Positions 15,684 through 30,088 of a stretch of DNA of 64,000 nt are shown piece after piece; position 1 is the first letter of the stretch; every line of letters begins with the position of its first letter. The notes under the pieces were generated by a model that saw only the letters and a program-made list of their open reading frames with translations, was not told the origin of the DNA and searched no databases. Source of the stretch: an uncultured Roseobacter sp. (GTDB lineage: Bacteria; Pseudomonadota; Alphaproteobacteria; Rhodobacterales; Rhodobacteraceae); contig NZ_CANMDB010000001.1 of the NCBI RefSeq assembly GCF_947496515.1, forward strand, positions 496,001-560,000, read 5' to 3'. Made by a program: the position numbers and the translations under genes.

Positions 15684-15878
15684 GGAAGGCACTCCGGTGT
15701 CGGGCGCCGTGATGCCCGGTCATGCGTTGGTGCCCTCACGAAAGGCTGTCCCCGCTCTTGATTGCAGCGCATGGTTGGATGGGCCGCTATTATACCGCTT
15801 AAGGGTGTACGAATTTTCGCCGTTTCGCCAAACGATTCGAGCATTTTTTCTCCGCAATGATGCAGAAATGACATCACG

Positions 15879-17393
15879 CTACGCTTCGGGCGCGCGCCCG
15901 CGCCCCGGACCCCGCCTGAATGCGCCGACACCTGCGCGCACGATCGCCACGATCGTGACCACTGTCATGGCCCAGAAGAACCAGGTGATCGGGCCACGGA
16001 TCAGGATGGTGGGATCGCTGCCCGACATCAGCATGGCCTGACGAAAGTTATCCTCCAGCAGCGGTCCGAGGATGAACGCAATGAGGAAAGGTGCGGGTGG
16101 CACGCGGTAGCGCATCATGACAAAACCGACCCAGCCCATGGCGAACATCACGCCCACATCGAAGATATTATTGTTGACCGCAAAGACACCGTAGATGCAC
16201 AGCACCAGCACGGCGGGGATCAGGATCCGCCGCGGGAGATCGGCCACATATTTGAAGCCGCGAATGGCGACGGAGCCCACCATGAACAGAAACAGCGAGC
16301 TGACGATCAGCCCGATAAAGAGCCCGTATATGATGTCGACGTTCAAGATAAACATCATGGGTCCGGGCTGCAGCCCGTGGATCATGAAGGCGCCGATGAT
16401 GATCGCAGTGATCACATCCCCCGGCACGCCGAGCGCCAAAAGCGGGATCAGCGTGGCCCCCGCCACGCCATTGTTGCCCGCCTCGGACGCGGCGACCCCT
16501 TCGATCTCTCCCTTGCCGAAGTTCTCGCGGTTCTTGGAGGTGCGGCGCGCCTCGGAGTAGCTCAGAAAGGCCGAAGGAGCTGCCCCGATGCCGGGGATCG
16601 AGCCCAGAAAGACGCCGATGAAACTGCCCCGCACGATGGATTTGAAGCTGCGACGGTAGTCGGCAAAGCTCACCCAGTTCTTGCCGAGACTGCGGGTCTT
16701 GCCCACATGCGCGGTCGGGTGCCAGACCATGGCGAGGATCTCAGGGATGGCGAAAAGCCCGATCAGCACGGCGATGAAGTTGAGCCCGCCCATCATGTTG
16801 GGATCGCCGAAGGTGAACCGGTTGGTGCCGTAAACCAGATCCAGCCCGATGGTTGCCAAGAGCAGCCCCAACAGCGCCGAAAGCGCACCGCGCAGCAGGC
16901 TGTCGCCCGAGACACCGGCGATGATGGTCAGCGAGAACAGGATCAGGGTGAAAAACTCCGGGGGTCCGAAGCTGAGCGCGAAACTTGCCAGCCACCCGGC
17001 AAAGAGAATGAGCGCCAGATTGGAGATCACATCCGCCGTGCAGGAGGCCCAGAGCGCCATACCAAGGGCGCGGCCCGCCTCGCCGCGCTCCGCCAGCGGG
17101 TACCCGTCGAGAATGGTGGCCGAGGAAGCAGGCGTCCCGGGTGTCTTGATCAGGATCGCGGGGATCGAGCCTCCAAAAATCCCGCCTTTATAGACCCCCA
17201 GCAGCAATAGGATCCCCGTGATGGGTTGCATCGCAAAGGTGAAAGGTAGCGTCAGTGCCACGGCCATGGTGGCCGACATGCCCGGAATGGCCCCGCCGAT
17301 CACCCCGATCACCACGCCGATGAAGAGCGCCAGAAAAGCTTCGATATTACCCACGAGGCTGAGACCCGCGGCGAGACTGTCAAGAAAGCTCAT
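15879..17393 (-). CDS. tctA: Tripartite tricarboxylate transporter large permease TctA
   Basis: A 504-aa inner membrane protein with about 11-12 segments. It carries the TctA signature region GAIPGMSATMAVALTLPFT (residues about 33-52) and a second related motif GSIPGIGAAPSAFLSYSEARR near the middle. Typical length. It overlaps tctB by 4 bases. With TctB and the binding protein TctC it forms a secondary carboxylate importer. The substrate is not readable from sequence. The neighbouring dehydratase and fumarate reductase-like genes suggest a dicarboxylate or a related acid. Confidence 0.95.
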   Translation of the reverse strand: MSFLDSLAAGLSLVGNIEAFLALFIGVVIGVIGGAIPGMSATMAVALTLPFTFAMQPITGILLLLGVYKGGIFGGSIPAILIKTPGTPASSATILDGYPLAERGEAGRALGMALWASCTADVISNLALILFAGWLASFALSFGPPEFFTLILFSLTIIAGVSGDSLLRGALSALLGLLLATIGLDLVYGTNRFTFGDPNMMGGLNFIAVLIGLFAIPEILAMVWHPTAHVGKTRSLGKNWVSFADYRRSFKSIVRGSFIGVFLGSIPGIGAAPSAFLSYSEARRTSKNRENFGKGEIEGVAASEAGNNGVAGATLIPLLALGVPGDVITAIIIGAFMIHGLQPGPMMFILNVDIIYGLFIGLIVSSLFLFMVGSVAIRGFKYVADLPRRILIPAVLVLCIYGVFAVNNNIFDVGVMFAMGWVGFVMMRYRVPPAPFLIAFILGPLLEDNFRQAMLMSGSDPTILIRGPITWFFWAMTVVTIVAIVRAGVGAFRRGPGRGRAPEA

Positions 17394-17964: not shown

Positions 17965-18939
17965 TTAGCCTTCGATCCGCATGCCCAGATCATCTACCAG
18001 CTTGCGAAAGGTCTCGTACTGGCCCTGAATGAAGTCATTGGCCTCTTCGGGGGACATCACCCGAATGATCGAGCCGCGCGATTCCATCTTTTCGACGAAC
18101 TCCGCATCGGCCGCCGCACTCTGCATCCAGTCGCCCCATTTGGCCGCCACCTCATCCGGCAGCCCCGCGGGACCCGCGATGCCGGTCCAGCCAACCATCT
18201 GCTGCAGATCGGGCTGGCCCAGATCGACGGAGGTCGGTGCGTCAAAGCCCTCGACCGGATCCGCCGTGGTGACCATGAGCGCACGCATCTGACCGTTGCT
18301 GACAAAGCCCGCGAGCGCGGAGCTGTTGGTGCAAAGGAAATCAGCCGTCCCGTTCAGCACCGCCGTGGCAGCAGCGCCACCACCCTGTTGCGGAATATGC
18401 GTCGCCGCGTTCGCGGCATCCTCCACGCCGAAGGCATTCAGCACCATCGCCGCCGCCAGATGCGGGCCCGATCCGACGCCGGAGGACGAAAAGCTGATGC
18501 CATCGCCCTTGGCCTGCTCGATCAAAGCCTCCATCGAGGTAATGTCGGAGCGGGCAGAGACCACACAGGCAAAGGGGTTGATCTCATAAACGGTGACAAA
18601 GCGGAAATCTTCCAGCGTGTAGGGCAGCGTGGCCTTCATCGCAGGATTGACGGAATGTGAGCCCACGCGCGCAAAGAGCATGGTATAGCCGTCTTCCTTG
18701 GCGTTCTGAACCGCGACGGATCCTGTCGCCCCCCCTGCCCCGGTGACATTGGCCATCACCAGTGGTTTGCCGACCGCTTTGCCCAGTGGTTCCGAAATTG
18801 TCCGCGCAGAGATATCGGTTGCACCGCCTGCGCCGTAAGGGATGACCATGTTGATGGGCCGCTCCGGGTATTCCGCCCAAGCAGCACCGGCCAGGCCAAG
18901 ACTGAGGGCGCAGACCGCACCCATGGTTTTCAACGTCAT
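17965..18939 (-). CDS. tctC: Tripartite tricarboxylate transporter substrate-binding protein TctC
   Basis: A 324-aa periplasmic binding protein of the TctC/Bug family. It starts at ATG 18939 behind GGGAGGAAA; the longer open frame upstream is not used. The signal peptide (ALSLGLAGAAWA, cut near residue 22) leads into EYPERPINMVIPYGAGGATDISAR, the standard start of mature Bug proteins. VTGAGGATGSVAV follows. First gene of tctCBA, divergent from a LysR gene, with a candidate LysR box 120 bases upstream. Confidence 0.93.
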   Translation of the reverse strand: MTLKTMGAVCALSLGLAGAAWAEYPERPINMVIPYGAGGATDISARTISEPLGKAVGKPLVMANVTGAGGATGSVAVQNAKEDGYTMLFARVGSHSVNPAMKATLPYTLEDFRFVTVYEINPFACVVSARSDITSMEALIEQAKGDGISFSSSGVGSGPHLAAAMVLNAFGVEDAANAATHIPQQGGGAAATAVLNGTADFLCTNSSALAGFVSNGQMRALMVTTADPVEGFDAPTSVDLGQPDLQQMVGWTGIAGPAGLPDEVAAKWGDWMQSAAADAEFVEKMESRGSIIRVMSPEEANDFIQGQYETFRKLVDDLGMRIEG

Positions 18940-19030
18940 CGTTTTCCTCCCGTTTGGTATGGGCACGCTAGGCCTCTCCGGGCCGTCGCGACAGCGCGCT
19001 TGCACAAGTCGTAACCTTAAGACATCCTTT

Positions 19031-19071
19031 ATAGAAGTAAGAATGAATTACACATTCAGTAAGCTCAGCTA
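19031..19071. promoter_or_regulatory. tctC/lysR divergent promoter with candidate LysR box
   Basis: In the 150-base gap between tctC and lysR, GTAAGCTCAGCT (19059-19070) is identical to a motif in front of the second operon at 26021-26032. It lies 20 bases before the lysR start. On the minus strand a -10-like TATAAA sits about 27 bases downstream of it, a spacing that fits activation of tctC by a LysR-type protein. Confidence 0.55.
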
Positions 19072-19089
19072 CGCAAAGGGTCACGCGGC

Positions 19090-19998
19090 ATGTCCATCCG
19101 AACGCTTCGGACGCTGATCGCCGTGCACGATCACAAGACCTTCAGCGCGGCCGCCGATGCGGTCTACGTTACCCACGCCGCCGTGAGCCAGCAAATGCGC
19201 GCGCTGGAGGAAAAGTGGCGCGTGCAGCTCTTTGATCGCAGCAAACGCACGCCTGAGCTGACGCCCCTTGGCCGCGCGCTGGTGGCCAAGGCGCGCGATG
19301 TGGTGCGCGCCTACGATCAGATGCTGCCCTCCGTGCTGGATGAAAGCGGGCTGAGCGGTGACGTGGCACTGGGGGCGCTGCCCACGACATTGACGACCAT
19401 GGTGCCCGCGGCCATGTCGATGCTGGTCGCGACCTACCCGCGCGTCCGCCTGCGCCTCTTTCCCGGGCTCAGCAATCAACTTGTGTCGCAACTGGAGCGG
19501 GGACACCTGGATGCAGCCATCATCTCGCGCCCGGATCTGTTGCCCGCCGGTTTGCAGTTTCTTGAGATCGCCGAAGAGCCGCTGCAACTGCTCGCCGCAC
19601 GGGAGGTGACGAGCGATGATCCGTTCGAGCTGCTGGCCAGCGCGCCTTTCATCCGGTTCAACCGCGATGCGGTGGTTGGCTACATGATCGAAAGCTGGCT
19701 GCAAAAGAAGGGCATCCGCGTCAACGAGGTGATGGAGCTGGATGGGCTGGAGGCCATCTCCAGCATGGTCTTTGCCAATCTGGGCGTCGCCATCGCACCG
19801 CGCCGCGCGGTGCAAAGCACTCATCCGCTGCCGCTCAAACGTCTGTCGCTGGGGCCGGATGCACCGGTGCGCCGGCTGGGTCTGGCCTTCCCCGAAGAAA
19901 CGGCCCGGCGTCCGGTTCTGGGCAAGCTGCACCAGCTCTGTCGTGACTGTGTTGAGATTGGTGCCTTTGGCCCGCGCGCCGCGGCCACCGCACCGTGA
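19090..19998 (+). CDS. LysR-family transcriptional regulator
   Basis: A 302-aa LTTR with an N-terminal winged helix (SIRTLRTLIAVHDHKTFSAAADAVYVTHAAVSQQ) and a C-terminal effector domain of periplasmic-binding-protein type. Divergent from tctCBA and followed, with a GTGA overlap, by a TauE exporter. Its likely targets are its own promoter and tctC. A shared 12-base motif suggests it also controls the dehydrogenase/dehydratase operon at 20.8-25.9 kb. The inducer would be the transported acid or a product of it. Confidence 0.92.
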   Translation: MSIRTLRTLIAVHDHKTFSAAADAVYVTHAAVSQQMRALEEKWRVQLFDRSKRTPELTPLGRALVAKARDVVRAYDQMLPSVLDESGLSGDVALGALPTTLTTMVPAAMSMLVATYPRVRLRLFPGLSNQLVSQLERGHLDAAIISRPDLLPAGLQFLEIAEEPLQLLAAREVTSDDPFELLASAPFIRFNRDAVVGYMIESWLQKKGIRVNEVMELDGLEAISSMVFANLGVAIAPRRAVQSTHPLPLKRLSLGPDAPVRRLGLAFPEETARRPVLGKLHQLCRDCVEIGAFGPRAAATAP

Positions 19999-20735
19999 GC
20001 GGTCACGATCTGACCTATCTGGTAATCGGCGCGCTCGCGGGCGGGTTCATCAACGGGTTGGCCGGTTTTGGCACCGCGCTTTTCGCACTGGGGTTTTTCC
20101 TGACGATCATGCCCGCGCTGGAGGCGGTCGCCATCACCGTCGTCATTTCGGTGGTCAGCGGGCTGCAGGGGCTGTGGATCGTACGCGGTTCAGTGGCGCG
20201 GCACCCGCGGCGGCTGGCGCGTTTTTTGCTGCCCGCGCTGGTCGGCGTGCCGTTGGGTGTCGCGTCTCTGCGCAGCCTCGATCCTGCGGTGCTGAAGCTG
20301 GTGATCGCCTTTTTCCTGCTGCTCTACGGCGGGTTTTTCTCGCTCCGCCGGACCCTGCCACGGATCGAGCGGCCGACACCTGTGATCGACTGCGGCGTCG
20401 GCTTCGCTGCGGGTTTGCTGGGCGGGGCCGCATCGCTGTCGGGCGCGCTGCCGACCATGTGGTGCTCGATGCGTGCCTGGCCAAAGTACGAGACCCGGGC
20501 GGTGCTGCAACCTTTCAACGTCATGGTGCTGGGGCTGACGGCGGTGGTTCTGGCCTGGAACGGCGCTTATCACGCGCAAACCATGGTGCATATCGCCGTG
20601 GCCTTGCCCACCGCGCTGATCGCCGCGCAAGTCGGAATTGCCGTCTTCAAATATCTCTCAGACGATGCCTTCCGACGGCTGTTGATTGCGGTGTGTTTTC
20701 TGTCAGGCTGTGTGCTGTTGATCCGCGAGCTGTAG
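19995..20735 (+). CDS. TauE/SafE-family membrane transporter
   Basis: A 246-aa membrane protein with about eight segments in two related halves (GALAGGFINGLAGFGTALF; GVGFAAGLLGGAASLSG), the pattern of the TauE/SafE family. It starts with GTG 19995 overlapping the lysR stop. Family members export sulfite, sulfoacetate or other small anions. Its coupling to the LysR gene of a carboxylate system suggests it exports an acid or an inhibitory by-product; this is inference. Confidence 0.88.
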   Translation: MSGHDLTYLVIGALAGGFINGLAGFGTALFALGFFLTIMPALEAVAITVVISVVSGLQGLWIVRGSVARHPRRLARFLLPALVGVPLGVASLRSLDPAVLKLVIAFFLLLYGGFFSLRRTLPRIERPTPVIDCGVGFAAGLLGGAASLSGALPTMWCSMRAWPKYETRAVLQPFNVMVLGLTAVVLAWNGAYHAQTMVHIAVALPTALIAAQVGIAVFKYLSDDAFRRLLIAVCFLSGCVLLIREL

Positions 20736-20752
20736 GTAGCAGCGTGACGGGC

Positions 20753-20772
20753 AATGGCTTTGCAAAGCCATT
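20753..20772. repeat. 20-base perfect palindrome (dispersed type, copy 1)
   Basis: AATGGCTTTGCAAAGCCATT lies in the 50-base gap between the convergent tauE-like and dehydratase beta genes. Two close relatives occur at 30023-30042 and 32759-32778. No T-run follows, so it is not a classic intrinsic terminator, although it can form a 9-10 bp hairpin on both strands and may stop or stabilise both transcripts. Confidence 0.65.
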
Positions 20773-20785
20773 CCACCGCGCCGCG

Positions 20786-21454
20786 TCAGCCGATCACCTC
20801 GTCGGAGCGGTCGTCGGTCTCGCCGTAGCGCTTCATCACTGCGGGCCGCGTCCCCTCATAGACCCGGTCTAGGTTTTCCGCGATCTTGGCATTCTCCCGC
20901 TCGAAAAGGCACTCCCCCTGCAGGTTGGAGGCCACGATGAAGGGGCCCATGCGCCGCGCCCGGATCACCCACATGGCCTGCGCGATCCCCAATTCCTCGT
21001 GCCAGTGCACCGCCTCGACATTCTCCACCCCACGCCCCAGAAGCGCGCCCGTCCCGTACCCTACCGTTGACAGAAATACCGCACCGTTGGGCACGAAATA
21101 GGATTTGTAATCCTTGGACGACATGCCCCCCTTGCCGATGATCAGTTTTGCACCGGTCTTTTCCATCCACTCGGACAACCATTTGGTAAAGCGAAAGCTC
21201 GATGTGGCCGTCACAGCCCCCAGATCGAAGGATCCATCCTCGCGTATGACCGCTGCAGGCGAGCAATGAAAATTCGCGGCACTCTCGGACGGCAACTCCA
21301 TGGGAATATTCGCCTTTTCCTCCAACGCCCGCATATAGACGCCTTCGCGCGCGGTGTAGATCAGCCCGTCCAGATAGACGATGTCGCCGAGGCGTAGATC
21401 GGCGATGGCCTCTGCTGTGGGGGTAGTCGACAGTGTGACTTCGCGCAGGCTCAT
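20786..21454 (-). CDS. ttdB: Class I fumarase / L-tartrate dehydratase, beta subunit
   Basis: A 222-aa subunit of a two-part Fe-S hydro-lyase. I start it at ATG 21454, which overlaps the alpha stop by 4 bases; a longer frame upstream lies inside the alpha gene. Motifs LRLGDIVYLDGLIYTAREG, FHCSPAAVIREDGSF and IIGKGGMSS are those of the beta domain of class I fumarases and tartrate dehydratases. With the alpha subunit it would add or remove water on a C4-C5 dicarboxylate such as fumarate, tartrate or mesaconate. Sequence alone does not settle the substrate. Confidence 0.88.
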   Translation of the reverse strand: MSLREVTLSTTPTAEAIADLRLGDIVYLDGLIYTAREGVYMRALEEKANIPMELPSESAANFHCSPAAVIREDGSFDLGAVTATSSFRFTKWLSEWMEKTGAKLIIGKGGMSSKDYKSYFVPNGAVFLSTVGYGTGALLGRGVENVEAVHWHEELGIAQAMWVIRARRMGPFIVASNLQGECLFERENAKIAENLDRVYEGTRPAVMKRYGETDDRSDEVIG

Positions 21455-22407
21455 TCCGCCGCCTCCCGCTGTGGTTTCCAGTCCACCGTCTCGCGCCGCT
21501 GGTAGGGGGTGAACCAGTCGGGGTCCGTGCGGTGCTCCACCCGGCCGTCCGGGAAGAGCCGTGCCACCGCCCGGCGTGAGGAGAGGCAAAAGGCGTGGAC
21601 CGACATCTGCATGCCACCGGTATGGCAATACCCAACTTCAATATTGCAGTCTATCACCATGTTTTTGCCGACAAACCCCATCGCTCCCATACCGATGGAA
21701 TTGCCAAGCTCCTTGAACTCATCCTCCAGCGCGGCGATCTTCGGGTCCGGGTTCCGACTACCCACCGTGCGCAGGACCGAGGCGCGCTTGCCCAGCACCA
21801 TACAGGTGTCTTTGGACCCGCCCAGTCCGATCCCGATGATCGCAGGCTGACAGGCAAGCCCGCGTTTACCAAAGGCCACCAGACTGTCGAGGTAGAACCG
21901 CTTGATCCCTGCGATCCCGTCCGAGGGAAAGAGCATCCGGTAGTCGGTGCCAAAGAGCCCGCCCTTGTGCACGGTAATCAGGTCGATCCAATCGCCCTCG
22001 GGCTCAAACCCGTACTCGATTTCGGGCGCGCCGATCCCGACGTTATTGTTGTGATCCGTGCGCCAGAGCGGATGCACCCGGTTGGGGCGCAGCGGCACGC
22101 CGGTGGTGGCATTGGCCGTGGCCCGGCGCAGCGCCGCCTCAAGTGCGATGAACCCGCCTTCGATGCGCGCCTCATTGCCCAGCTTGACGAACCAGCGCGG
22201 CACGCCCGTGTCCCCGCACATGGCGCGGCGATCCTCCTTGGCGGCCTCGTAATTGTCGAGCATCGCCTGAAGGACGAAAGAAGACAGATCACCGTCCTCG
22301 GTCTTGGCCGCAGCCTTCAACCCATCCAGATAATCCTGCGGGATCTCGATAGCCGCCTTGTCCATGAGGGTCTCGGCGGTGGATTGGATGAGGGAAAGCG
22401 GGATCAC
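21451..22407 (-). CDS. ttdA: Class I fumarase / L-tartrate dehydratase, alpha subunit
   Basis: A 318-aa catalytic subunit that would hold a [4Fe-4S] cluster. Candidate ligands are the Cys in AMCGDTGVPRWFVK, one in GLACQPAIIGIGLGGSKD and one in EVGYCHTGG. It starts with GTG 22407 in a GTGA overlap with the small gene upstream; an alternative is the in-frame ATG at residue 15. Its place behind a fumarate reductase-like complex suggests consecutive steps: dehydrogenation of a succinate-like acid, then hydration of the double bond. The tct importer with a shared promoter motif fits this. Confidence 0.88.
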   Translation of the reverse strand: MIPLSLIQSTAETLMDKAAIEIPQDYLDGLKAAAKTEDGDLSSFVLQAMLDNYEAAKEDRRAMCGDTGVPRWFVKLGNEARIEGGFIALEAALRRATANATTGVPLRPNRVHPLWRTDHNNNVGIGAPEIEYGFEPEGDWIDLITVHKGGLFGTDYRMLFPSDGIAGIKRFYLDSLVAFGKRGLACQPAIIGIGLGGSKDTCMVLGKRASVLRTVGSRNPDPKIAALEDEFKELGNSIGMGAMGFVGKNMVIDCNIEVGYCHTGGMQMSVHAFCLSSRRAVARLFPDGRVEHRTDPDWFTPYQRRETVDWKPQREAAE

Positions 22408-22778
22408 AATGCAATTCCTAACTCTCTTCTGATCGCTGAAAGCATAATTTCATTTATTTCAGGCTGTTTGTGGCCTTCATCTACTCTTTTTGCGATGGCT
22501 TTTGCGATGGCTTCACGCGTGGCCTGACTGGAGACTATTTCACACCTCATTCGCCAGTACGCAAATGTGGTTAGTGTTTCCTCGGTTCCGCTTGCCACAT
22601 GATCTCCCATTGACTTCAGCAACCCAATGAATGCTTCTCTTTTTTCTCCGTATAGGCGATCCGCTTGTCGCTCCTTGCTGTTCAGCCAATTCTTCACAAG
22701 CAGTGTAATTAACGAAACTAGACCCAAAATTGGCAGGGCCTGTACAAGGCCGGAGAGAACGTCCACCTCGCTACTCAT
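22404..22778 (-). CDS. Small low-GC membrane-anchored protein inserted in the dehydrogenase/dehydratase operon
   Basis: A 124-aa protein with one N-terminal membrane segment (ALPILGLVSLITLLV) followed by a charged helical domain (KNWLNSKERQADRLYGEKREAF). Not recognised. Its base composition is plainly more AT-rich than both neighbours, a sign of separate origin. Even so it fits the operon exactly: its ATG overlaps the flavoprotein stop (ATGA) and its TGA overlaps the alpha-subunit GTG start (GTGA). Such domains resemble small membrane proteins of mobile or defence-related loci, but I cannot assign a function. Confidence 0.7.
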   Translation of the reverse strand: MSSEVDVLSGLVQALPILGLVSLITLLVKNWLNSKERQADRLYGEKREAFIGLLKSMGDHVASGTEETLTTFAYWRMRCEIVSSQATREAIAKAIAKRVDEGHKQPEINEIMLSAIRRELGIAL

Positions 22779-24526
22779 TGCGCTGCTACTAGCGTTTCGG
22801 GTTCGCCCTCGGGCAGGATAGTCTTTCCCGGGTGAACGATTGAAAAATCAACATCTTGGCGGGTGACGCTAACCTTATCTCCGTCCTGTCGGGCGACGGT
22901 GAAGTAGGAAGCCTCCATCGTACCGGCCTCCGGGAAGTCTTCGCGGAAGTGCGCTCCGCGGGAATTCTCCCTTGCGCGCCCGGCCTGCGCGATGACTTTC
23001 GAGACATCACAAAGGCTCGCCAGGTTCAGCCAGTCGTGCCACGTCAGGTTGAACGCCAGATTGTCTGCTGCCACGCCGACCTCCATCATCTCGGTCCGGA
23101 TCTCAGCGATGCGGGTCAGCCCGCGCTCCATACCTTCCGCCGTGCGCATGACGCCCACGTCCTCCCACATCGCCTCCTGCAAACGGTTACGCAGGGGCTG
23201 AACGAGCCCCGGCGGGCGGGTCAGCGGATGGAGCGCGCGGGCGAGTTCGTCTGCCAGCGCGTCTTCATCCGGATCGCGCACCCCCCCCATGTTACGCAAA
23301 TCGCGGGCCATGGTATCCCCTGCAATACCGCCGTAAACCGTTGAATTCGCGACACCATTGCCACCCAACCGGTTGGAGCCATGCGCGCCGCCTGCGTCTT
23401 CTCCGGCAACATAGAGCCCTTCCAGTGCAGTGCGGGTCTCCACATCCACCACCACCCCGCCCATAAAGTAGTGCGCGGTCGGCACCACCTCGACCAGCCC
23501 ACCAGCGAGATCGAACCCGCTGTCCTCGCAGCGTTTCACCATGCCTTTGAATTTCGCGCGCACATTGTCGGGCCCCAGATGCGCCATGGAGATGAACATG
23601 CCGACCTGCGCCGGATCGTTGCTCTTGCGCATCTCGGCGTAGATGCCGCGGCTGACCACATCGCGGGTCGCGCGCTCGCCCTTGGCGTCGTAGTCGAACA
23701 TGAAGCGTTGGCCCGCGCCGTTCAGCAACTGCCCGCCCGCGCCGCGCAGCCCCTCCTCCAGCACTGTGCCCGTCATGCGGCTGTGCGCGCCCGCGAGCAG
23801 GCCGGTGGGGTGGAACTGGACCATCTCCATATCGCGCAAGGGCAGACCCGCCCGCAGCGCCATGGCCAGACCGTCCATGCTCTTGTCGCCAGAGGGTGTG
23901 TGGTATTTGTACATGGTCGGCCCACCACCCGTGGCCATCAGCACCGTCTTGGCCCGCACGAACCGAAACCGCCCCGTACGCATGTCGATCATCAGCACAC
24001 CTGCGAGCGCGCTGCCGTCCTTGGTGGGAATCAGGCCAATGGCCCGGTGTTCCTGCAGCTTTTCGACGGGGCGGCTCAGCACCTGCTCCATCAGCCGGTT
24101 GATAATTTCAATGCCCGTCAGATCGCCCTTGTGCACCGTACGATCGGCGGTCTGCCCGGCAAAGGCTTTCTGGTGGAGTGTGCCGTCGGGGTTTCGGTCA
24201 AAGAAACAGCCGATCTCGTTCTCAAGCTCGCGGATGCGCACGACCGCCTGCTCGCACAGCCGCCAGGCCATGTCCTGATCGGGCAGCCACTTGCCGCCCT
24301 CGATGGTATCCATGAAGTGCCGCTCGACCGTGTCACCGCCGCCGAGCGCAACATTGTACCCCCCCTGCACCATCCGCGTGCAGCCGCATTTGCCGATCAG
24401 CCCTTTGACCGCGATTGTAATCCTGGTGCCTTCGGGCGCGGATTGCTGCGCATGAAGCGCCGCAAACAGCCCAGCCCCCCCGGTGCCGAGGATCAGGATG
24501 TCCGTGTCGTGGCGGTCAATATCCAT
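22775..24526 (-). CDS. Fumarate reductase/succinate dehydrogenase-like flavoprotein with altered FAD site
   Basis: A 583-aa FAD enzyme. I start it at ATG 24526, overlapping the preceding stop by one base. N-terminal GTGGAGLFAALHA binds FAD. The substrate-site motifs of the SdhA/FrdA family are present: QFHPTG, EEGLRGAGGQLL, TRDVVSRG with the catalytic Arg, HYFMGG, and NRLGGNG. In classic SdhA a His (E. coli His45) binds FAD covalently; the aligned residue here is Cys49 in KCGCTRMVQGG, so FAD is probably not histidyl-linked. It acts with the Fe-S and two membrane subunits encoded upstream. Likely a quinone-linked oxidoreductase for succinate or a substituted succinate. Distinct from a housekeeping sdh, which is not in this window. 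Confidence 0.9.
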   Translation of the reverse strand: MDIDRHDTDILILGTGGAGLFAALHAQQSAPEGTRITIAVKGLIGKCGCTRMVQGGYNVALGGGDTVERHFMDTIEGGKWLPDQDMAWRLCEQAVVRIRELENEIGCFFDRNPDGTLHQKAFAGQTADRTVHKGDLTGIEIINRLMEQVLSRPVEKLQEHRAIGLIPTKDGSALAGVLMIDMRTGRFRFVRAKTVLMATGGGPTMYKYHTPSGDKSMDGLAMALRAGLPLRDMEMVQFHPTGLLAGAHSRMTGTVLEEGLRGAGGQLLNGAGQRFMFDYDAKGERATRDVVSRGIYAEMRKSNDPAQVGMFISMAHLGPDNVRAKFKGMVKRCEDSGFDLAGGLVEVVPTAHYFMGGVVVDVETRTALEGLYVAGEDAGGAHGSNRLGGNGVANSTVYGGIAGDTMARDLRNMGGVRDPDEDALADELARALHPLTRPPGLVQPLRNRLQEAMWEDVGVMRTAEGMERGLTRIAEIRTEMMEVGVAADNLAFNLTWHDWLNLASLCDVSKVIAQAGRARENSRGAHFREDFPEAGTMEASYFTVARQDGDKVSVTRQDVDFSIVHPGKTILPEGEPETLVAAQ

Positions 24527-24882
24527 CAGATCACCTGCAGAAAGAACGTGCCGGAGAGAAAGAGAGCAGCCCCCACCGCGCCCGCCGCGAGGGTTTTTTG
24601 CGGCGCCGACCACGGCAGCCATTCCAGTGCCATCAGCCGAAGGCCGCCAAAGGCATGGACCGCAAGAAGAAACACCAGCCCGAATTCGGCAAACTTCACA
24701 AGCGGTTGCTCGGCAAAGAGCAGGAATTCATCGAGTTGGTCCGGCGCGGTCAGCGCGTAGGAGAGCACCCAGAAGTGCAGCGGCAAAAAGAGCGCGAGCG
24801 CCAGACCGGAGACCCGGTGCAGCACAAAGGCGAGCCACAGGGGATGCGCCCGCCCCGGTCTCACGCGCCGCTCCCCGGCCAT
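24526..24882 (-). CDS. Succinate dehydrogenase/fumarate reductase-like membrane anchor subunit (SdhD/C-like, b)
   Basis: A 118-aa protein with three membrane segments. HRVSGLALALFLPLHFWVL near residue 22 matches the HRxSG start of cytochrome b558-type anchor subunits, and His in LLAVHAFGGLRLMALEW is a plausible heme ligand. It overlaps the other anchor gene by 22 bases and the flavoprotein gene by one. It should bind heme b and quinone together with the 114-aa subunit. Confidence 0.85.
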   Translation of the reverse strand: MAGERRVRPGRAHPLWLAFVLHRVSGLALALFLPLHFWVLSYALTAPDQLDEFLLFAEQPLVKFAEFGLVFLLAVHAFGGLRLMALEWLPWSAPQKTLAAGAVGAALFLSGTFFLQVI

Positions 24883-25205
24883 GTGACGGCGATCAGTGCC
24901 TGGCCTCCGAGCGCCAGTAGAGCCAGCGCAATCGCGCCCGTCACCAGCCTGAGTGCAAGACCCTTCAGCCCCGCCAGCTCGTGCAGGATCACGCGCAACC
25001 CGATGGCTGCGTGCACGCTGATCGCGATCACGAAACTGCCGTAGAACAGAAACCAGAAGACGGACCCCTGCGTGCGGCCGAGTATCTCTGCCGCGGTCAG
25101 GCCGCCCTGCACCGCATAGATCATCACTGCGATATGCCCCAGCGTCAGCGGCGCCATGACCAGGGCCGTGATCCGCTGCAGCATATAGAGACGCAGATCC
25201 AGCAT
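24861..25205 (-). CDS. Succinate dehydrogenase/fumarate reductase-like membrane anchor subunit (a)
   Basis: A 114-aa protein with three membrane segments; LYMLQRITALVMAPLTLGHIAVMIYAV and SVHAAIGLRVILHE supply His residues suited to heme b. It starts one base into the stop of the Fe-S subunit gene (TGATG) and overlaps the next gene by 22 bases. Together with the 118-aa protein it should anchor the complex in the inner membrane and pass electrons to quinone. Confidence 0.83.
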   Translation of the reverse strand: MLDLRLYMLQRITALVMAPLTLGHIAVMIYAVQGGLTAAEILGRTQGSVFWFLFYGSFVIAISVHAAIGLRVILHELAGLKGLALRLVTGAIALALLALGGQALIAVTWPGSGA

Positions 25206-25936
25206 CAGCTCCCCCCCCGGCGCCAGAACCGCTTTGCCGTTTCGCGCTTCAGCCCGGCGATGGCCGACATGGGGTCAAGGTCGTTGGGGCAGAAGGCGGT
25301 GCAACTGCCCATGGAGTGGCAGTTGTGGCACCCACCGTGTCCTGATACCGCATCAAAGATCGCCGCGCGACCGTCGTGTTTTGCGTCGTTGAGCAGCGTC
25401 CAGGCTCGTTGCAGCGCCGCGGGGCCGAGGTAATCCGAATTGCCTGTCACCGTGTCGCAGCCCGCATAGCAGATCGCGCAGTTGATGCACTCGATCCCGG
25501 CGCTTGCGGTGACGCGAGCAGGTTGGGCGGGATCAACTGGCGGGATCGGCTCGTGCCGCGTGGCACTGGGCCGGTGCGCGCCGCCCGCCGCGACCCATTT
25601 GTCAAAGAACGGATCCATATCCGTGGCAAGATCCTTGATGACCGGCAGGTTGCGCAGGGGGCCGATCTGCACCTTGCGCCCCTGGAGCACCTTGCGCACA
25701 TGGGTCCGGCAGGTCCACCGGGGCCGCCCGTTCACCATCATCGCACAGGATCCGCACATGCCCACGCGGCAGGCAAACCGATAGGTCAGTGTCGGATCTG
25801 CGTATTGCTGGATCCAGGATACCACATCAAGGATCGTCTGGCTTTCCATCGTAGGAACGACAAAGCTCTGATACGCGCCACCCGATGCCGTACCGCGCCA
25901 GACAGAGACGTCCAGATCATCGAGAGGCTCGGGCAC
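25205..25936 (-). CDS. Succinate dehydrogenase/fumarate reductase-like iron-sulfur subunit
   Basis: A 243-aa electron-transfer subunit and first gene of the leftward operon. The [2Fe-2S] ligands are Cys56, Cys61, Cys64 and Cys76 (FACRVGMCGSC...WTC). The second half has CINCAICYAGC and CHSMGSCTAFCP for the [4Fe-4S] and [3Fe-4S] or second [4Fe-4S] clusters. It passes electrons from the flavoprotein to the membrane subunits. The promoter region upstream (25937-26054) carries the candidate LysR box shared with tctC. Confidence 0.92.
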   Translation of the reverse strand: MPEPLDDLDVSVWRGTASGGAYQSFVVPTMESQTILDVVSWIQQYADPTLTYRFACRVGMCGSCAMMVNGRPRWTCRTHVRKVLQGRKVQIGPLRNLPVIKDLATDMDPFFDKWVAAGGAHRPSATRHEPIPPVDPAQPARVTASAGIECINCAICYAGCDTVTGNSDYLGPAALQRAWTLLNDAKHDGRAAIFDAVSGHGGCHNCHSMGSCTAFCPNDLDPMSAIAGLKRETAKRFWRRGGS

Positions 25937-26020
25937 GGTGCTTCCTGTGGCGGGTGGCGGCTGCGTCGTGATATAACTGCTAGAGAAGCTAACGAGAAGG
26001 AATATGTCCTTATGTTTTCT

Positions 26021-26034
26021 GTAAGCTCAGCTTA
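26021..26034. promoter_or_regulatory. Candidate LysR box before the dehydrogenase operon and nitroreductase gene
   Basis: TAAGCTCAGCTTA (26022-26034) is a perfect inverted repeat around a single central C and fits the LysR T-N11-A rule. The 12 bases GTAAGCTCAGCT from 26021 are identical to 19059-19070 in front of tctC/lysR. Flanking TTC before and CAAA further on are also shared. The site is 85 bases from the Fe-S subunit start and 21 from the nitroreductase start, so it could act on both. Confidence 0.6.
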
Positions 26035-26054
26035 TCAAAAGGCGCGCGGACCCA

Positions 26055-26843
26055 ATGGCCCGGCCTGACCTGCAAACCCTGCTAGAGGAACGGTTCGGCG
26101 AGGGACTTGAGGTACCCGCTGCTCTGGCGCAGAACGACGCGCTACAGCGTATTGCGGGCCGCGCCTCCTGTCGGCAGTTCACGGATGCCGCGATCGACCC
26201 GCAGTTGCTGGAGGCGCTTTGCGCGGTGGCACTGGCGGCCCCCTCCAAGAGCGATCTGCAGCAACGGGATTTCCTGATCGTGACCGACCCGGGCGTGATG
26301 GCCGAGCTTAAGGCGCTGCTGCACGCACAGTCGTGGATCGCTGATGCCCCTGCGATGATCGTGGTGCTCGCCAACAACCGCCGCCAGCGTCAGATCCAAT
26401 CCTGGCACGATCAGCCTTTCCCGAACGATCATCTGGATGCGTTCTTCAATGCCAGTGTCGACGCGGGCATCGCGTTGGCCTTTTTCATCGCGGCGGCGGA
26501 GGCCGCGGGGCTCGGGTGCTGCCCCATCAGCACCATTCGCAACCATCTCGAACCGGTCACGGACCTGCTTGACCTGCCGGATCACGTCTTTCCTGTCGCA
26601 GGGCTCGGCGTTGGCTGGCCCGCTGAGACCGGCGACATCAGCCCGCGGCTCTCCGGCGCGGCGACCATCCACCGCGACCGCTTTGTCGATATCACGCGCG
26701 ATCAGGTCGAGGCCTACGACGACCGCCGCCGCGCCGGACAGCCCGGACCGGGGTGGTCCGAGGCCAAGGCCCGGATGTACGCCGAGCCGCAGCGCATGGA
26801 TTTCGGAAAGATCATGCGCAAAATCGGCTTTCATCTGGAATAG
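26055..26843 (+). CDS. Nitroreductase-family FMN oxidoreductase
   Basis: A 262-aa flavoprotein of the nitroreductase superfamily. GRASCRQFTDAAIDPQLLEALCAVALAAPSKSDLQ is the FMN-binding start, and AAEAAGLGCCPIS with DLPDHVFPVAGLGVGWP the second signature. It has the length and the NfsA-type C-terminal extension (GWSEAKARMYAEPQR). Substrates could be quinones or nitro or other conjugated compounds; the sequence does not say. It is divergent from the dehydrogenase operon and shares the candidate LysR box region. Confidence 0.9.
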   Translation: MARPDLQTLLEERFGEGLEVPAALAQNDALQRIAGRASCRQFTDAAIDPQLLEALCAVALAAPSKSDLQQRDFLIVTDPGVMAELKALLHAQSWIADAPAMIVVLANNRRQRQIQSWHDQPFPNDHLDAFFNASVDAGIALAFFIAAAEAAGLGCCPISTIRNHLEPVTDLLDLPDHVFPVAGLGVGWPAETGDISPRLSGAATIHRDRFVDITRDQVEAYDDRRRAGQPGPGWSEAKARMYAEPQRMDFGKIMRKIGFHLE

Positions 26844-26867: not shown

Positions 26868-26895
26868 CCATATTTCCGATATTCATGAAATATGG
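26868..26895. promoter_or_regulatory. Candidate ArsR operator overlapping the arsRC start codon
   Basis: CCATATTTC-N10-GAAATATGG is a perfect 9-base inverted repeat, AT-rich like known ArsR operators. The ATG at 26892 lies inside the right arm. A -35-like TTGCAC (26858-26863) and -10-like TATTCA (26880-26885) would place transcription start near 26892. Bound ArsR would therefore block the promoter, and the mRNA may be nearly leaderless. Confidence 0.65.
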
Positions 26896-27734
26896 AAGAA
26901 ATGATTCTCGACCGGCTTTCTCTGCTCAGCCACCCTCACCGGCTGGCGGTTTTTCGATTGCTGATGCGCCGCTACCCTGACGCGGTGCCGGCGGGCGAGA
27001 TCGCCGTGATCCTCGATCTCAAGTCGTCCACCGCCTCCGTCTACCTCTCGGCGCTTTGCGACGCGGCACTGATCACCCGGCACCGGCAGGGCACTTCACT
27101 GCGGTACCGGGCGCAACCGGCGGCGGCGGGCACGCTGATCGAGTTTCTCTTCACCGATTGTTGCCGGGGTCGTCCTGATCTCTGCCCCGGCGTCATTCCA
27201 ATGACAGGAGACGACTGCATGCCGCGCCCGCCCCGGAACGTTCTCTTCATCTGCACAGGCAATTCAGCCCGCTCGATTTTTGCGGAAAGCATCCTTCGGG
27301 ATCTGGATCCGGGCCGATTCAAGGTGTTTTCCGCCGGAACTCATCCCGCATCGACGCTGAATCCGCTGGCCCTGGAGATGCTGGAGGCCAAGGGCCATGA
27401 CACGTCCTCGTTACGCGCCAAGCATATCGCGGAATACCAGGGATCTGACGCGCCCTGCATGGATTTCGTCTTTACCGTCTGTGACCGCGCCGCCAACGAA
27501 GACTGCCCCGCCTGGGACGGTCAGCCCATCAGCGGCCACTGGGGCGTGCCCGACCCGGCCAAGGCAACTGGCACTTTGGCCGAGAGGCGGCTCGCATTTC
27601 AGCAAGCCTACGGCGCGCTGCGCAACCGGATCGAGGCTTTCGCCGCGCTGCCCATCGACACCCACGACCGTATCGCGCTGCAATCCGCCGTGGACGGGAT
27701 CGGCGCCTCAGACCTTGAAGGAACCTCTGCATGA
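26892..27734 (+). CDS. ArsR repressor fused to LMW-type arsenate reductase ArsC
   Basis: A 280-aa fusion. Residues 1-88 form an ArsR winged helix ([36 protein letters not shown]). Cys90, Cys91 and Cys98 come directly after, much like the three-Cys As(III) site known from the Acidithiobacillus-type ArsR. From residue 111 an arsenate reductase of low-molecular-weight phosphatase type follows: P-loop Cys121-TGNSA-Arg127 and a later Cys in [11 protein letters not shown]. One protein thus senses arsenite and reduces arsenate. No ribosome site precedes ATG 26892; ATG 26901 is an alternative. It overlaps the GAPDH gene by 4 bases. Confidence 0.92.
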
Positions 27735-28729
27735 CCACCTACGCGCTCAACGGCCTCGGCCGCATCGGCAAGCTGGCCCTACGGCCTCTTCTGGAGCGGG
27801 GGACGCAGATCGCCTGGCTCAACGATGCGGTGGGTGATCCCGCCATGCACGCCCATCTGCTGGAGTTCGACACCGTGCACGGTCGGTGGCCTGCGAGCTT
27901 CAGCGCGGATCACAGCAGTGTGCGCATCGATGACATACGCTTGCCAGTGCACGCAGAGCGGGACCCCGCCAAGCTGCCGCTGGAAGGGGTCGATGTGGTG
28001 ATCGACTGTACCGGCGTTTTCAAGACCGAGGCCGCACTGGCACCCTACTTTGCCGCTGGCGTGAAAAAGGTTGTCGTCTCCGCGCCCGTAAAGGACGGCC
28101 CTACCGCAAATGTGGTCTACGGCGTCAACAATGACGCGTATGTTCCGACCGAACACCGGATCGTGACAGCGGCGAGCTGCACGACCAATTGCATCGCGCC
28201 TGTCGTCAAGGTCGTGCACGAAAACCTCGGGATTAAACACGGCTCGATCACCACGATCCATGATGTGACGAACACGCAGACCATCGTCGACCGACCCGCC
28301 AAGGACCTGCGCCGCGCGCGTTCGGCACTGAATTCGCTGATCCCCACGACGACCGGTAGCGCAACGGCGATCACGCTGATCTATCCGGAGCTCAAGGGGA
28401 GGCTCAACGGCCACGCGGTGCGGGTGCCGCTGCTCAATGCGTCACTGACCGACTGTGTGTTCGAGCTGGCGCGTGAGACGACCGCAGAGGAGGTGAATGC
28501 GCTCTTCAAGGCGGCTGCCGAAGGTCCGCTCAATGGCATTCTGGGCTACGAGACCCGGCCTCTGGTCAGCACGGATTACACCAATGACCCGCGCTCGGGC
28601 ATCGTTGATGGGCCGTCCACGATGGTCGTGAACGGCACGCAGCTAAAGGTCTATGTCTGGTATGATAACGAGTGGGGCTATGCGAACCGGTTGGTCGATG
28701 TCGCGCTGATGGTCGGCGAGAGCCTGTGA
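27731..28729 (+). CDS. gapdh (ars): ArsJ-associated glyceraldehyde-3-phosphate dehydrogenase
   Basis: A 332-aa GAPDH with the NAD site [16 protein letters not shown] (instead of the usual GFGRIGR) and the catalytic Cys in [10 protein letters not shown]. In ars operons with arsJ, this enzyme forms 1-arseno-3-phosphoglycerate from arsenate and glyceraldehyde-3-phosphate, which ArsJ exports (established for the GAPDH-ArsJ pair). It overlaps both neighbours by 4 bases, so it belongs to the arsenic operon and is not the glycolytic copy. Confidence 0.93.
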
Positions 28730-29988: not shown

Positions 29989-30022
29989 CCGCTGGCAGGA
30001 GAGCGTACCGGGTGCCGCCGCG

Positions 30023-30042
30023 AAGGGCCTTGCAAGGCCCTT
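30023..30042. repeat. 20-base perfect palindrome (dispersed type, copy 2)
   Basis: AAGGGCCTTGCAAGGCCCTT lies between arsJ and modA on the same strand, in a 100-base gap. It differs from copy 3 (32759-32778) only in the two central bases. The bases after it (GCCCGCGCC) also resemble those after copy 3. It can form a strong hairpin but lacks a T-run. Confidence 0.7.
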
Positions 30043-30088
30043 GCCCGCGCCTCTTGCAACCATCGCCGCGCTGACCGAATGTGACGCC

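What the first reader, a model, noticed from the sequence alone, without database searches (positions are those of the whole stretch)
19031..26034. Possible unrecognised dicarboxylate pathway: Tct importer, LysR, SDH-like complex and class I hydratase linked by a shared promoter motif
GTAAGCTCAGCT occurs identically at 19059-19070 (between tctC and lysR) and at 26021-26032 (before the SDH-like operon). The second copy extends to a perfect palindrome TAAGCTCAGCTTA that fits the LysR T-N11-A rule. The motif ties together an importer, an atypical SDH/FRD-like complex and a two-part class I hydro-lyase. A succinate-like acid could be imported, dehydrogenated and hydrated. Class I fumarases are known to accept mesaconate and tartrate dehydratases are close relatives, so substrates such as methylsuccinate/mesaconate or tartrate are candidates. 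The reading as one pathway is inference.
Basis: partly seen in the sequence, partly recalled or inferred. Interest (0 to 1): 0.8.

Follow-up and report, generated by a model that had tools for sequence, protein, structure and literature searches.

The report
Sulfonate-processing twin of succinate pathway
A gene cluster in marine Roseobacter-group bacteria, currently annotated as succinate dehydrogenase plus fumarase, most likely breaks down a sulfur-containing look-alike of succinate (3-sulfopropanoate), which would supply genes for a sulfonate breakdown route that had none.

Summary
The repeat is real: GTAAGCTCAGCT occurs exactly twice in the 4.93 Mb genome, at the stated sites. The literal 12-mer is partly coincidence. 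The conserved element is a LysR-type box, GTAAG-N5-CTTAC, found (8 of 10 positions or better) upstream of sdhB in 50 of 67 loci outside the genus group (reversed-pattern control 13) and of lysR in 48 of 57 (control 4). Importer, LysR and SDH/hydratase operon are very probably one unit.

The dicarboxylate reading is probably wrong. Neighbours in relatives handle sulfite (TauE, YeiH, SorA/SoxC). One relative has ComDE beside the hydratase; five have SSADH-like and alcohol dehydrogenase genes directly before sdhB. Outside the own family, carriers are enriched for Xsc or SuyB (18/25 vs 25/179). Both enzymes carry family-invariant active-site changes.

Best reading: 3-sulfopropanoate → 3-sulfoacrylate → 3-sulfolactate → sulfopyruvate → sulfoacetaldehyde → acetyl phosphate + sulfite. 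A 2024 paper cites a thesis naming sulfoacrylate and sulfolactate as intermediates in Roseovarius nubinhibens; the passages I read name no genes. The substrate is inferred, not shown.

The parts
15879..17393 (-). TctA, large permease of the tripartite importer
   Evidence: PF01970, 486 bits
17390..17881 (-). TctB, small permease
   Evidence: PF07331, 57 bits
17965..18939 (-). TctC, periplasmic binding protein (ATG at 18939; the ORF list starts at a GTG at 19005)
   Evidence: PF03401, 113.5 bits (searched as 17965-18945); best PDB sequence matches 2dvz (BugE, name from PMC5812351) and 2f5x (BugD)
19017..19031 (.). Weak LysR-type box TTAAGACATCCTTTA (7/10)
19037..19051 (.). Better LysR-type box GTAAGAATGAATTAC (9/10) in the tctC-lysR gap
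19059..19073 (.).
19090..19998 (+). LysR-type regulator, presumed regulator of both operons
   Evidence: PF00126 + PF03466; binding inferred from conserved boxes
19995..20735 (+). TauE/SafE family exporter, presumed sulfite (or sulfonate) export
   Evidence: PF01925, 102 bits, cut-off 32.6
20786..21454 (-). Class I hydratase, C-terminal (beta) subunit, presumed 3-sulfoacrylate hydratase
   Evidence: PF05683; start from the ATGA overlap with the alpha subunit (sequence)
21451..22407 (-). Class I hydratase, N-terminal (alpha) subunit with C-G-D-T-G in place of C-Q-D-T-G
   Evidence: PF05681, 223 bits; substitution
22404..22778 (-). 124-aa ORF of unknown function between the two enzymes, variable among relatives, not part of the core
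   Evidence: no Pfam or NCBIfam hit; of the loci laid out only L018 (43%) and the own genome match it; L039-L041 and L108 have other small ORFs there
22775..24526 (-). SdhA-like flavoprotein, presumed 3-sulfopropanoate dehydrogenase (start taken at MDIDRH)
   Evidence: PF00890 + PF02910; below the curated cut-off of each of the 25 NCBIfam models listed, of 31 matched
24526..24882 (-). SdhC-like cytochrome b556 subunit (called sdhD in my scripts)
   Evidence: TIGR02970, 54.4 vs cut-off 52.3
24861..25205 (-). SdhD-like membrane anchor (called sdhC in my scripts)
   Evidence: PF01127; TIGR02968, 31.2 vs cut-off 41.8, below it
25205..25936 (-). SdhB-like iron-sulfur subunit
   Evidence: TIGR00384, 171 vs cut-off 88
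26021..26035 (.).
26055..26843 (+). Divergent nitroreductase-family gene, role unknown; a relative lies divergent within 400 nt of sdhB in 33 of 80 loci
   Evidence: PF00881; count

Best explanation
The region is an organosulfonate catabolic unit. TctCBA brings in a C3 sulfonate that mimics succinate, most likely 3-sulfopropanoate. The SdhABCD-like complex, by analogy tied to the quinone pool, dehydrogenates it to 3-sulfoacrylate. The two-subunit class I hydratase adds water to give 3-sulfolactate. Elsewhere in this genome an FMN 2-hydroxyacid dehydrogenase gene beside ComDE, and Xsc, could turn sulfolactate into sulfopyruvate, sulfoacetaldehyde and finally acetyl phosphate plus sulfite; TauE would export the sulfite. 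LysR would sense the substrate or an intermediate and act at GTAAG-N5-CTTAC boxes in both promoters. Shown here: the genes, the conserved boxes, the co-localisation with sulfite and sulfonate genes, the co-occurrence with desulfonation enzymes, and the active-site substitutions. Inferred: every substrate, reaction and binding event.
For: Regulatory link. Gene unit; tctA then sdhB on one strand in L061 and L117.
Sulfite-handling neighbours in the 80 nearest loci (of 555 or more relatives): TauE 57, SorA-like 16, YeiH 3, any of these 61; 43 of the 57 TauE and all 16 SorA-like genes lie within 3 kb of the core, against 6 TauE genes in the whole own genome. Unrelated sulfite families recur in distant lineages: Pseudomonas MPC6, Methylobacterium nodulans, Pseudorhizobium NT-26, Paracoccus versutus.
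C3-sulfonate neighbours: ComDE over curated cut-offs plus an LldD-like gene next to fumB in L196; genes I take for sulfolactate dehydrogenases, HpsN and SuyAB within about 21 kb of fumB in P. versutus (names partly recalled); SSADH-like plus alcohol DH directly before sdhB in 5 loci.
Co-occurrence: Xsc in 24/24 own-family carriers vs 17/30 non-carriers; outside the family, Xsc or SuyB in 18/25 class-level carriers vs 25/179, Fisher p = 4e-9.
Own genome has Xsc and ComE above cut-off, with LldD-like and HpsN-like genes beside ComE.
Active sites: the FrdA Thr244 position is Glu in 114/114, plus a six-residue insertion. The hydratase CQDTG Gln (9/9 outgroup) is Gly or Ala in 122/122.
Literature: 3-SP degradation 'has not previously been reported', with a cited thesis on R. 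nubinhibens naming sulfoacrylate and sulfolactate (PMC11489063, passages). TTT importers for sulfolactate are known (SlcHFG; PMC5812351, passages).
Against: No activity has been measured. TauE is a broad family: 14 of 14 control genomes have it, and it sits at 5 other places in this genome. In the class/phylum set only 9/30 loci show a sulfite gene by BLAST with my limited query set. All 16 SorA-like genes in the 80 loci are of one type, so they may reflect few events. Seven of 25 class-level carriers have neither Xsc nor SuyB, and ComE passes its cut-off in only 4 of these 25. In the own family SuyB is no commoner in carriers (1/24) than in non-carriers (5/30), and it is absent from the own genome. 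In the genus, Xsc and ComE also occur in the three genomes that lack the cluster. An MmsA-type gene sits nearby in four Pseudomonas/Cupriavidus/class-level loci, plus a partial match in a fifth, which a sulfolactate product does not explain. Itaconate-type genes sit nearby in G361 and G439, and a CaiB-type transferase in 8/80 loci, 7 of them between fumA and fumB. An invariant Glu beside an anionic substrate is unexpected.
Confidence: 0.5

Rival explanations
1. Same family and same substrate class, but the hydratase adds water at the carbon that bears the sulfonate. 3-Sulfoacrylate would give unstable 3-hydroxy-3-sulfopropanoate, which falls apart to malonate semialdehyde and sulfite; MmsA then makes acetyl-CoA. 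This would be direct desulfonation by a class I Fe-S hydratase.
For: An MmsA-type gene is near the cluster in L164, L165, L174 and L205, with a partial match in L166; L164 MmsA is 695 bits against a cut-off of 448.5. Sulfite exporters and sulfite dehydrogenases are in L164 and L166. Seven of 25 class-level carriers lack both Xsc and SuyB. Chemical analogy (recalled, not tested): 3-chloroacrylate dehalogenases hydrate their substrate to malonate semialdehyde.
Against: ComDE adjoins the cluster in L196 and presumed sulfolactate genes lie near it in Paracoccus, and class-level carriers are enriched for Xsc/SuyB. The thesis cited in PMC11489063 names sulfolactate. No MmsA hit in the 80 genome-collection loci (tblastn).
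Confidence: 0.17
2. The substrate is sulfosuccinate: dehydrogenated to sulfofumarate, then hydrated to unstable 2-hydroxy-2-sulfosuccinate, which releases sulfite and leaves oxaloacetate.
For: Uses the same two enzyme chemistries and explains the sulfite exporters and the lack of a dedicated next enzyme in many loci. The catalytic His and Arg positions of dicarboxylate dehydrogenases are kept in 114/114.
Against: Does not explain the ADH plus SSADH-like pair before sdhB, ComDE beside fumB or MmsA. Searches for 'sulfosuccinate', 'sulphosuccinate' and 'sulfofumarate' listed no gene-level paper, so no independent support.
Confidence: 0.08
3. C5-dicarboxylate pathway: methylsuccinate to mesaconate to citramalate.
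For: L193 and L194 (two genomes of one family) carry genes similar to citramalyl-CoA lyase and CaiB-type CoA transferase (L193 tested; L194 by eye), with what reads by eye as PrpD and a hydratase. A CaiB-type gene lies between fumA and fumB in 7 of 80 loci. Class I fumarases act on mesaconate (PMC12290011, passages).
Against: Neighbours in 61 of 80 loci include sulfite-family genes; no citramalyl-CoA lyase is among the window-cluster genes tested; the described methylsuccinate route uses CoA esters and an acyl-CoA dehydrogenase (PMC12290011, passages). It does not explain TauE, YeiH, SorA, ComDE, Xsc or SuyB.
Confidence: 0.09
4. Tartrate or another hydroxy-dicarboxylate, or an ordinary second succinate dehydrogenase/fumarase.
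For: Databases name the alpha subunit L(+)-tartrate dehydratase or fumarate hydratase (named rows among the 120 listed).
Against: Below cut-off for L(+)-tartrate dehydratase alpha (147 vs 365) and fumarate hydratase (198 vs 276). The family is separated by a wide gap on plasmids: 65% or more against 33% or less in the 60 of 85 rows listed. Invariant active-site substitutions. A tartrate route has no need of an SDH.
Confidence: 0.08

Closest known systems
Succinate dehydrogenase / fumarate reductase (complex II)
   Same: Four-subunit layout (flavoprotein, Fe-S protein, two small membrane subunits); catalytic His/Arg positions of FrdA kept in 114/114.
   Different: Flavoprotein scores below the cut-off of each of the 25 SDH, FRD, aspartate oxidase and flavocytochrome models listed; the FrdA Thr244 position is Glu and a six-residue insertion with an invariant Arg/Lys precedes it.
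Class I fumarase / L(+)-tartrate dehydratase (two-subunit)
   Same: Alpha and beta subunits; the Cys and His of the C-x-D-T-G and C-H-T motifs largely conserved; nearest solved structure 7xky.
   Different: C-[GA]-D-T-G in 122/122 instead of CQDTG (9/9 outgroup), plus other invariant differences around the site.
3-Sulfolactate catabolism of Roseovarius nubinhibens (SlcHFG importer, sulfoacetaldehyde acetyltransferase and cysteate sulfolyase branches)
   Same: TTT importer for a C3 sulfonate (PMC5812351, passages and a cited title); Xsc and ComE in the window genome.
   Different: The known route starts at sulfolactate; here two extra enzymes would make sulfolactate from 3-sulfopropanoate.
Homotaurine to 3-sulfopropanoate in Cupriavidus necator H16; DHPS to 3-sulfopropionate in Enterococcus gilvus
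   Same: They make the proposed substrate with enzymes related to 4-aminobutyrate or succinate-semialdehyde enzymes (PMC11489063, passages).
   Different: They stop at 3-sulfopropanoate; this cluster would go on from it.
3-Sulfopropionate as electron acceptor of Bilophila wadsworthia
   Same: Bacterial use of the same compound (PMC11489063, passages).
   Different: Anaerobic, makes H2S; the passages I read give no enzymes for it.
Itaconate / methylsuccinate cluster of pseudomonads
   Same: Handles succinate-like acids; similar genes lie near the cluster in two genomes.
   Different: Uses CoA esters and an acyl-CoA dehydrogenase (PMC12290011, passages).

Membership tests
Succinate dehydrogenase / fumarate reductase | Flavoprotein above curated family score | tested here: not met
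   TIGR01812 408.7 vs cut-off 567.3; TIGR01816 335 vs 727.35; TfrA 452 vs 718
Succinate dehydrogenase / fumarate reductase | Catalytic His/Arg (FrdA H232, R287, H355, R390) | tested here: met
   Each in 114/114 orthologues; FrdA numbering and roles recalled
Succinate dehydrogenase / fumarate reductase | Thr at the FrdA Thr244 position | tested here: not met
   Glu in 114/114 orthologues; Thr in the three PDB chains whose alignments were printed, two of them FrdA
Succinate dehydrogenase / fumarate reductase | Oxidises succinate | not testable with these tools
   Needs an enzyme assay
Class I fumarase / tartrate dehydratase superfamily | Fumerase and Fumerase_C domains, subfamily score | tested here: met
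   PF05681, PF05683; alpha TIGR00722 210 vs cut-off 100.65; beta TIGR00723 104.6 vs 145.15, below its cut-off
Fumarate hydratase (equivalog) | Curated equivalog score and CQDTG motif | tested here: not met
   PRK06246 198 vs 276; Gln replaced in 122/122
L(+)-tartrate dehydratase (equivalog) | Curated equivalog score for alpha and beta | tested here: not met
   alpha 147 vs 365; beta 121 vs 264
Tripartite tricarboxylate transporter | TctA, TctB, TctC together | tested here: met
   PF01970, PF07331, PF03401
LysR-type regulation | LysR protein, divergent gene, T-N11-A boxes conserved | tested here: met
   boxes in 50/67 and 48/57 non-genus upstream regions; binding not tested
TauE/SafE exporter | Domain score | tested here: met
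   PF01925 102 vs cut-off 32.6; substrate not testable here
Organosulfonate catabolic pathway | A desulfonating enzyme in the same genome | tested here: met
   Xsc over cut-off in the own genome; not in the cluster itself
Organosulfonate catabolic pathway | Growth on a sulfonate with sulfite or sulfate release | not testable with these tools
   Needs culture work
Itaconate/methylsuccinate pathway | CoA transferase, hydratase and citramalyl-CoA lyase with the cluster | tested here: not met
   None among the window-cluster genes tested; similar genes seen near in L193 and L194

The most novel reading that the evidence does not exclude
Bacteria run a sulfonate mirror of the succinate to malate stretch of the TCA cycle, with their own dedicated complex II and class I hydratase. 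In the lineages that carry MmsA nearby, this hydratase desulfonates directly by adding water at the sulfonated carbon, which would be a new way to break a C-S bond. Electrons from the sulfonate would enter the quinone pool directly.
Probability: 0.2. Interest if true: 0.88.

Novelty: new variant of a known kind. Interest (0 to 1): 0.72.

Why it matters
A 2024 paper states that bacterial degradation of 3-sulfopropionate had not been reported before, apart from a thesis on Roseovarius nubinhibens, and itself shows its use as an electron acceptor by Bilophila (PMC11489063, passages). In the listings of my ten paper searches and the passages I read I saw no paper that names genes for its breakdown. 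If right, many proteins now called fumarate hydratase or tartrate dehydratase belong to sulfonate turnover: 3626 database proteins match at E <= 1e-60, and every named row among the 120 listed bears one of those names. It would also show that complex II and class I fumarase can be re-tooled for sulfonates, and it makes the missing step directly testable.

Tried and rejected
Literal 12-mer as operator: rejected, because the spacer is not conserved in the genus group. Genome-wide regulon from the box: not informative; 427 matches at up to 2 mismatches against 1262 for the reversed pattern. The one perfect genomic copy (C6:129793) lies beside genes that read by eye as an RND efflux system and a TetR regulator, so I did not assign it. 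SuyAB as the next step in the window genome: rejected, no SuyB. The TPP enzyme found near the cluster in 22/80, 2/11 and 11/30 loci is not Xsc by the one member scored (170 vs 676 bits, L049); role unknown. Rfam, AlphaFold and fold searches were not used, since substrate rather than fold is the open question.

Limits of the counts: the 80 loci are the best 80 of at least 555 confirmed relatives, so they lean to the own family. 'Genus group' in the box statistics means the window and eight loci (L039-L043, L048, L053, L078); L083 and L096 also bear the title Roseobacter but were counted outside. Upstream regions scored: 76 for sdhB and 65 for lysR of 81 loci; the rest lacked a hit or enough sequence. 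The 114 SdhA-like and 122 FumA-like sequences hold 113 and 121 distinct ones. Of 37 own-family genomes outside the genus without the cluster, 27 went into. Ten were left out: G026, G037, G039, G040, G046, G051 (completeness 74-91%) and G055-G058 (80-handle limit). All 50 carriers known by then were used. For the 190-genome class background I assumed that both calls drew the same genomes, that all had been searched for the hydratase, and that eight are carriers; five of the eight show in the listings (G059, G165, G167, G236, G243), and G111, G118 and G138 are assumed. A few more or fewer would not change the result. The background includes small genomes, which lowers its rate. Loci and genomes are related by descent, so counts are not independent events.

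Full report
THE OBSERVATION. The 12-mer GTAAGCTCAGCT is at 19059-19070 and 26021-26032, and nowhere else exactly in the 4.93 Mb genome. The second copy extends to the 13-bp palindrome TAAGCTCAGCTTA. Simple arithmetic expects about 0.6 exact copies per genome, so the count is unremarkable; the closeness and intergenic position are not.

WHAT THE ELEMENT IS. In nine loci that I grouped as the genus (window plus eight) the sdhB promoter reads GTAAG-N5-CTTAC (six exact, three with one change) followed by a near-identical stretch CATAAGNACATATTCCTTCTCGTT; the five spacer bases vary freely. I scored this 10-base consensus in upstream regions of the other loci. For sdhB, 50 of 67 have a site with at least 8 of 10 positions, against 13 of 67 for the reversed pattern. 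For lysR it is 48 of 57 against 4 of 57. Including the genus group, the counts are 59 of 76 and 56 of 65, with 4.5 and 3.5 expected from Markov shuffles. The sdhB sites sit at a median of 85 nt before the (extrapolated) start codon. So the link between the two promoters is real, but the identity of the 12 letters is partly coincidence.

THE GENES. The minus-strand operon is sdhB, two small membrane subunits, sdhA, a 124-aa ORF, and the two subunits of a class I hydratase. On the other side lie tctCBA (-), lysR (+) and a TauE/SafE gene (+). The SdhA-like protein falls below the curated cut-off of each of the 25 models listed (31 matched), and the hydratase below the fumarase and tartrate dehydratase equivalog cut-offs. 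The own genome has one other SdhA-type match, at 35% identity. The hydratase alpha subunit forms a tight family: on plasmids 12 of 85 records match at 65-90%, and the other 48 rows listed are at 33% or less. It is in 16 of 19 genomes of the genus and in 3 of 40 other genomes of the family sampled, 24 of 385 class genomes and 10 of 398 phylum genomes; own genome and overlaps are included in the last two.

NEIGHBOURHOOD. Eighty loci with names were fetched, the best 80 of at least 555 relatives; by their titles they are alphaproteobacterial, mostly Rhodobacteraceae. By tblastn in these 80: fumB 79, sdhA 78, lysR 66, TauE 57, tctA 35, nitroreductase 35, TPP enzyme 22, SorA-like 16, CaiB 8, YeiH 3; at least one of TauE, YeiH or SorA/SoxC in 61. 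With stricter identity, LysR is in 65, TctA in 31 and TctC in 31; 43 of the 57 TauE and all 16 SorA-like genes lie within 3 kb of the core. The own genome has six TauE genes in all, and the family is present in all 14 control genomes. The SorA-like protein tested hits sulfite dehydrogenase models at E = 8e-46, below their equivalog cut-offs. Distant plasmid loci repeat the theme with unrelated parts. Pseudomonas MPC6 has TctCBA, TauE, the core, an MmsA, NIPSNAP, YeiH and a sulfite oxidase. Methylobacterium nodulans has SoxC, YeiH, a molybdopterin oxidoreductase with cytochrome c, and TauE. NT-26 has YeiH, NIPSNAP, LysR, TauE, a TRAP importer and SSADH. Paracoccus versutus has YeiH, NIPSNAP, TauE, LysR, then an L-sulfolactate dehydrogenase-like gene (204 bits, cut-off 500), a hydroxyacid dehydrogenase, a different TTT importer (TctA 32% to the window's), a histidinol-dehydrogenase-type gene and two UxaA-family genes. 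I take the hydroxyacid dehydrogenase, the histidinol-dehydrogenase-type gene and the UxaA pair for SlcC, HpsN and SuyAB from recalled gene order; NCBIfam names none of them so. In one class-level genome (L196) the order is HpsN-like, ComD, ComE, an FMN 2-hydroxyacid dehydrogenase, then the hydratase and SDH genes convergent with them. ComD and ComE pass their curated cut-offs (156.9 vs 147.95 and 232.9 vs 221.5). In five loci (L091, L097, L109, L111, L113) an SSADH-like gene (L091: 628 bits, cut-off 646) and an alcohol dehydrogenase gene sit directly before sdhB on the same strand. Against this, only 9 of 30 class/phylum loci (some from the own family) show a sulfite gene with my query set, 3 of 11 plasmid loci show none, and L193 and L194 carry itaconate-type genes.

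CO-OCCURRENCE. Xsc passes its cut-off in 24 of 24 own-family carriers and 17 of 30 own-family non-carriers (Fisher p = 0.0002; without the genus 8 of 8 vs 14 of 27, p = 0.015). ComE passes in 21 of 24 own-family carriers and 8 of 30 non-carriers; without the genus 6 of 8 vs 5 of 27 (p = 0.006). SuyB (81% identity or more here) is in 1 of 24 own-family carriers and 5 of 30 non-carriers. Outside the family, Xsc or SuyB (at least 63% identity) is in 18 of 25 class-level carriers against 25 of 179 non-carriers (p = 4e-9); seven of the 25 have neither, and ComE passes in 4 of the 25. The window genome has Xsc (C5), and ComE next to an LldD-like gene, an alcohol dehydrogenase, an SDR and an HpsN-like gene (C2; alcohol dehydrogenase and SDR by eye), but no SuyB. 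In the genus the three genomes without the cluster also have Xsc and ComE, so within the genus these give no contrast.

ACTIVE SITES. Of the FrdA residues known for catalysis (numbering and roles recalled), His232, Arg287, His355 and Arg390 are kept in 114 of 114 sequences. The Thr244 position is Glu in 114 of 114, and a six-residue insertion with an Arg (105) or Lys (9) lies just before it. In the hydratase the CQDTG motif is C-[GA]-D-T-G in 122 of 122 (107 Gly, 15 Ala) while nine class I fumarases used as outgroup have Gln. In Leishmania fumarase this Gln touches the substrate (recalled, not checked). Both changes fit a substrate with one end unlike a carboxylate. The Glu is not an obvious partner for an anion and I cannot explain it without a structure.

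MECHANISM. The family logic is succinate to fumarate to malate. Replacing one carboxylate by a sulfonate gives 3-sulfopropanoate to 3-sulfoacrylate to 3-sulfolactate; the ADH plus SSADH-like pair would add 3-hydroxypropanesulfonate or 3-sulfopropanal upstream, and the LldD-like enzyme, ComDE and Xsc the steps downstream. A 2024 paper states that degradation of 3-HPS and 3-SP had not been reported, except that a thesis on homotaurine use by R. nubinhibens gives 3-SP, sulfoacrylate and sulfolactate as intermediates; it shows 3-SP as an electron acceptor for Bilophila (PMC11489063, passages read). My search for 'sulfoacrylate' listed two papers, one of them this one and the other on trehalose carriers. 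The thesis was not seen. The 2009 homotaurine paper is not held.

ALTERNATIVES. MmsA near the cluster in Pseudomonas, Cupriavidus and a class-level genome (L164, L165, L205, L174, partial in L166) suggests malonate semialdehyde as product there, i.e. hydration at the sulfonated carbon with loss of sulfite. Sulfosuccinate would also yield sulfite but leaves the ADH/SSADH, ComDE and MmsA neighbours unexplained. Methylsuccinate/mesaconate is possible for the two itaconate-linked genomes.

VERDICT. The chemistry is more likely a sulfonate version of it. That this is an organosulfonate pathway I hold at about 0.75; that the entry substrate is 3-sulfopropanoate and the product sulfolactate, at 0.5.

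Noticed in passing
26892-29988: Next to the divergent nitroreductase lies a likely arsenic operon: an ArsR-type HTH fused to a low-molecular-weight phosphatase/arsenate reductase domain (HTH_20 + LMWPc), then a GAPDH and an ArsJ-like MFS transporter (the last two read by eye).
   Followed up: partly
29885-32705: Three ORFs that read by eye as a molybdate ABC importer (ModA, ModB, ModC) follow the arsenic genes; relevance to molybdenum sulfite dehydrogenases in relatives untested.
   Followed up: no
22404-22778: A 124-aa ORF without family hit sits between sdhA and fumA; other relatives have different small ORFs at the same junction (e.g. an isochorismatase-family gene in L047, L082, L104), so it looks like an insertion hot spot.
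   Followed up: partly
13475-15692: Three genes beyond tctA (unknown; ferric-reductase-like membrane domain fused to a Rieske domain; unknown) have relatives in 8 of 80 loci with the cluster.
   Followed up: partly
L049:1496-3097, L195:6087-7658: An uncharacterised single-chain TPP enzyme is near the cluster in 22/80, 2/11 and 11/30 loci, in some directly after a SorA-like gene (e.g. L195); not Xsc by score (L049).
   Followed up: partly
L063:10759-12102 and six other loci: A CaiB-type CoA-transferase gene is inserted between the two hydratase subunits in seven loci, five of them titled Marivita.
   Followed up: partly
L164-L172, L204, L205: The cluster sits on plasmids of Alpha-, Beta- and Gammaproteobacteria (12 records at 65-90% identity); 4 of the 11 fetched are typed conjugative, which suggests horizontal spread.
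   Followed up: partly
L172:21745-22917: A 3-sulfinopropanoyl-CoA desulfinase (635 vs cut-off 600) lies about 9 kb from the hydratase in Sulfitobacter THAF37, another C3 organosulfur enzyme.
   Followed up: partly
L048:11679-12442: ORFs that read by eye as an IS5-like transposase split the fumB-tauE gap in Roseobacter cerasinus.
   Followed up: no
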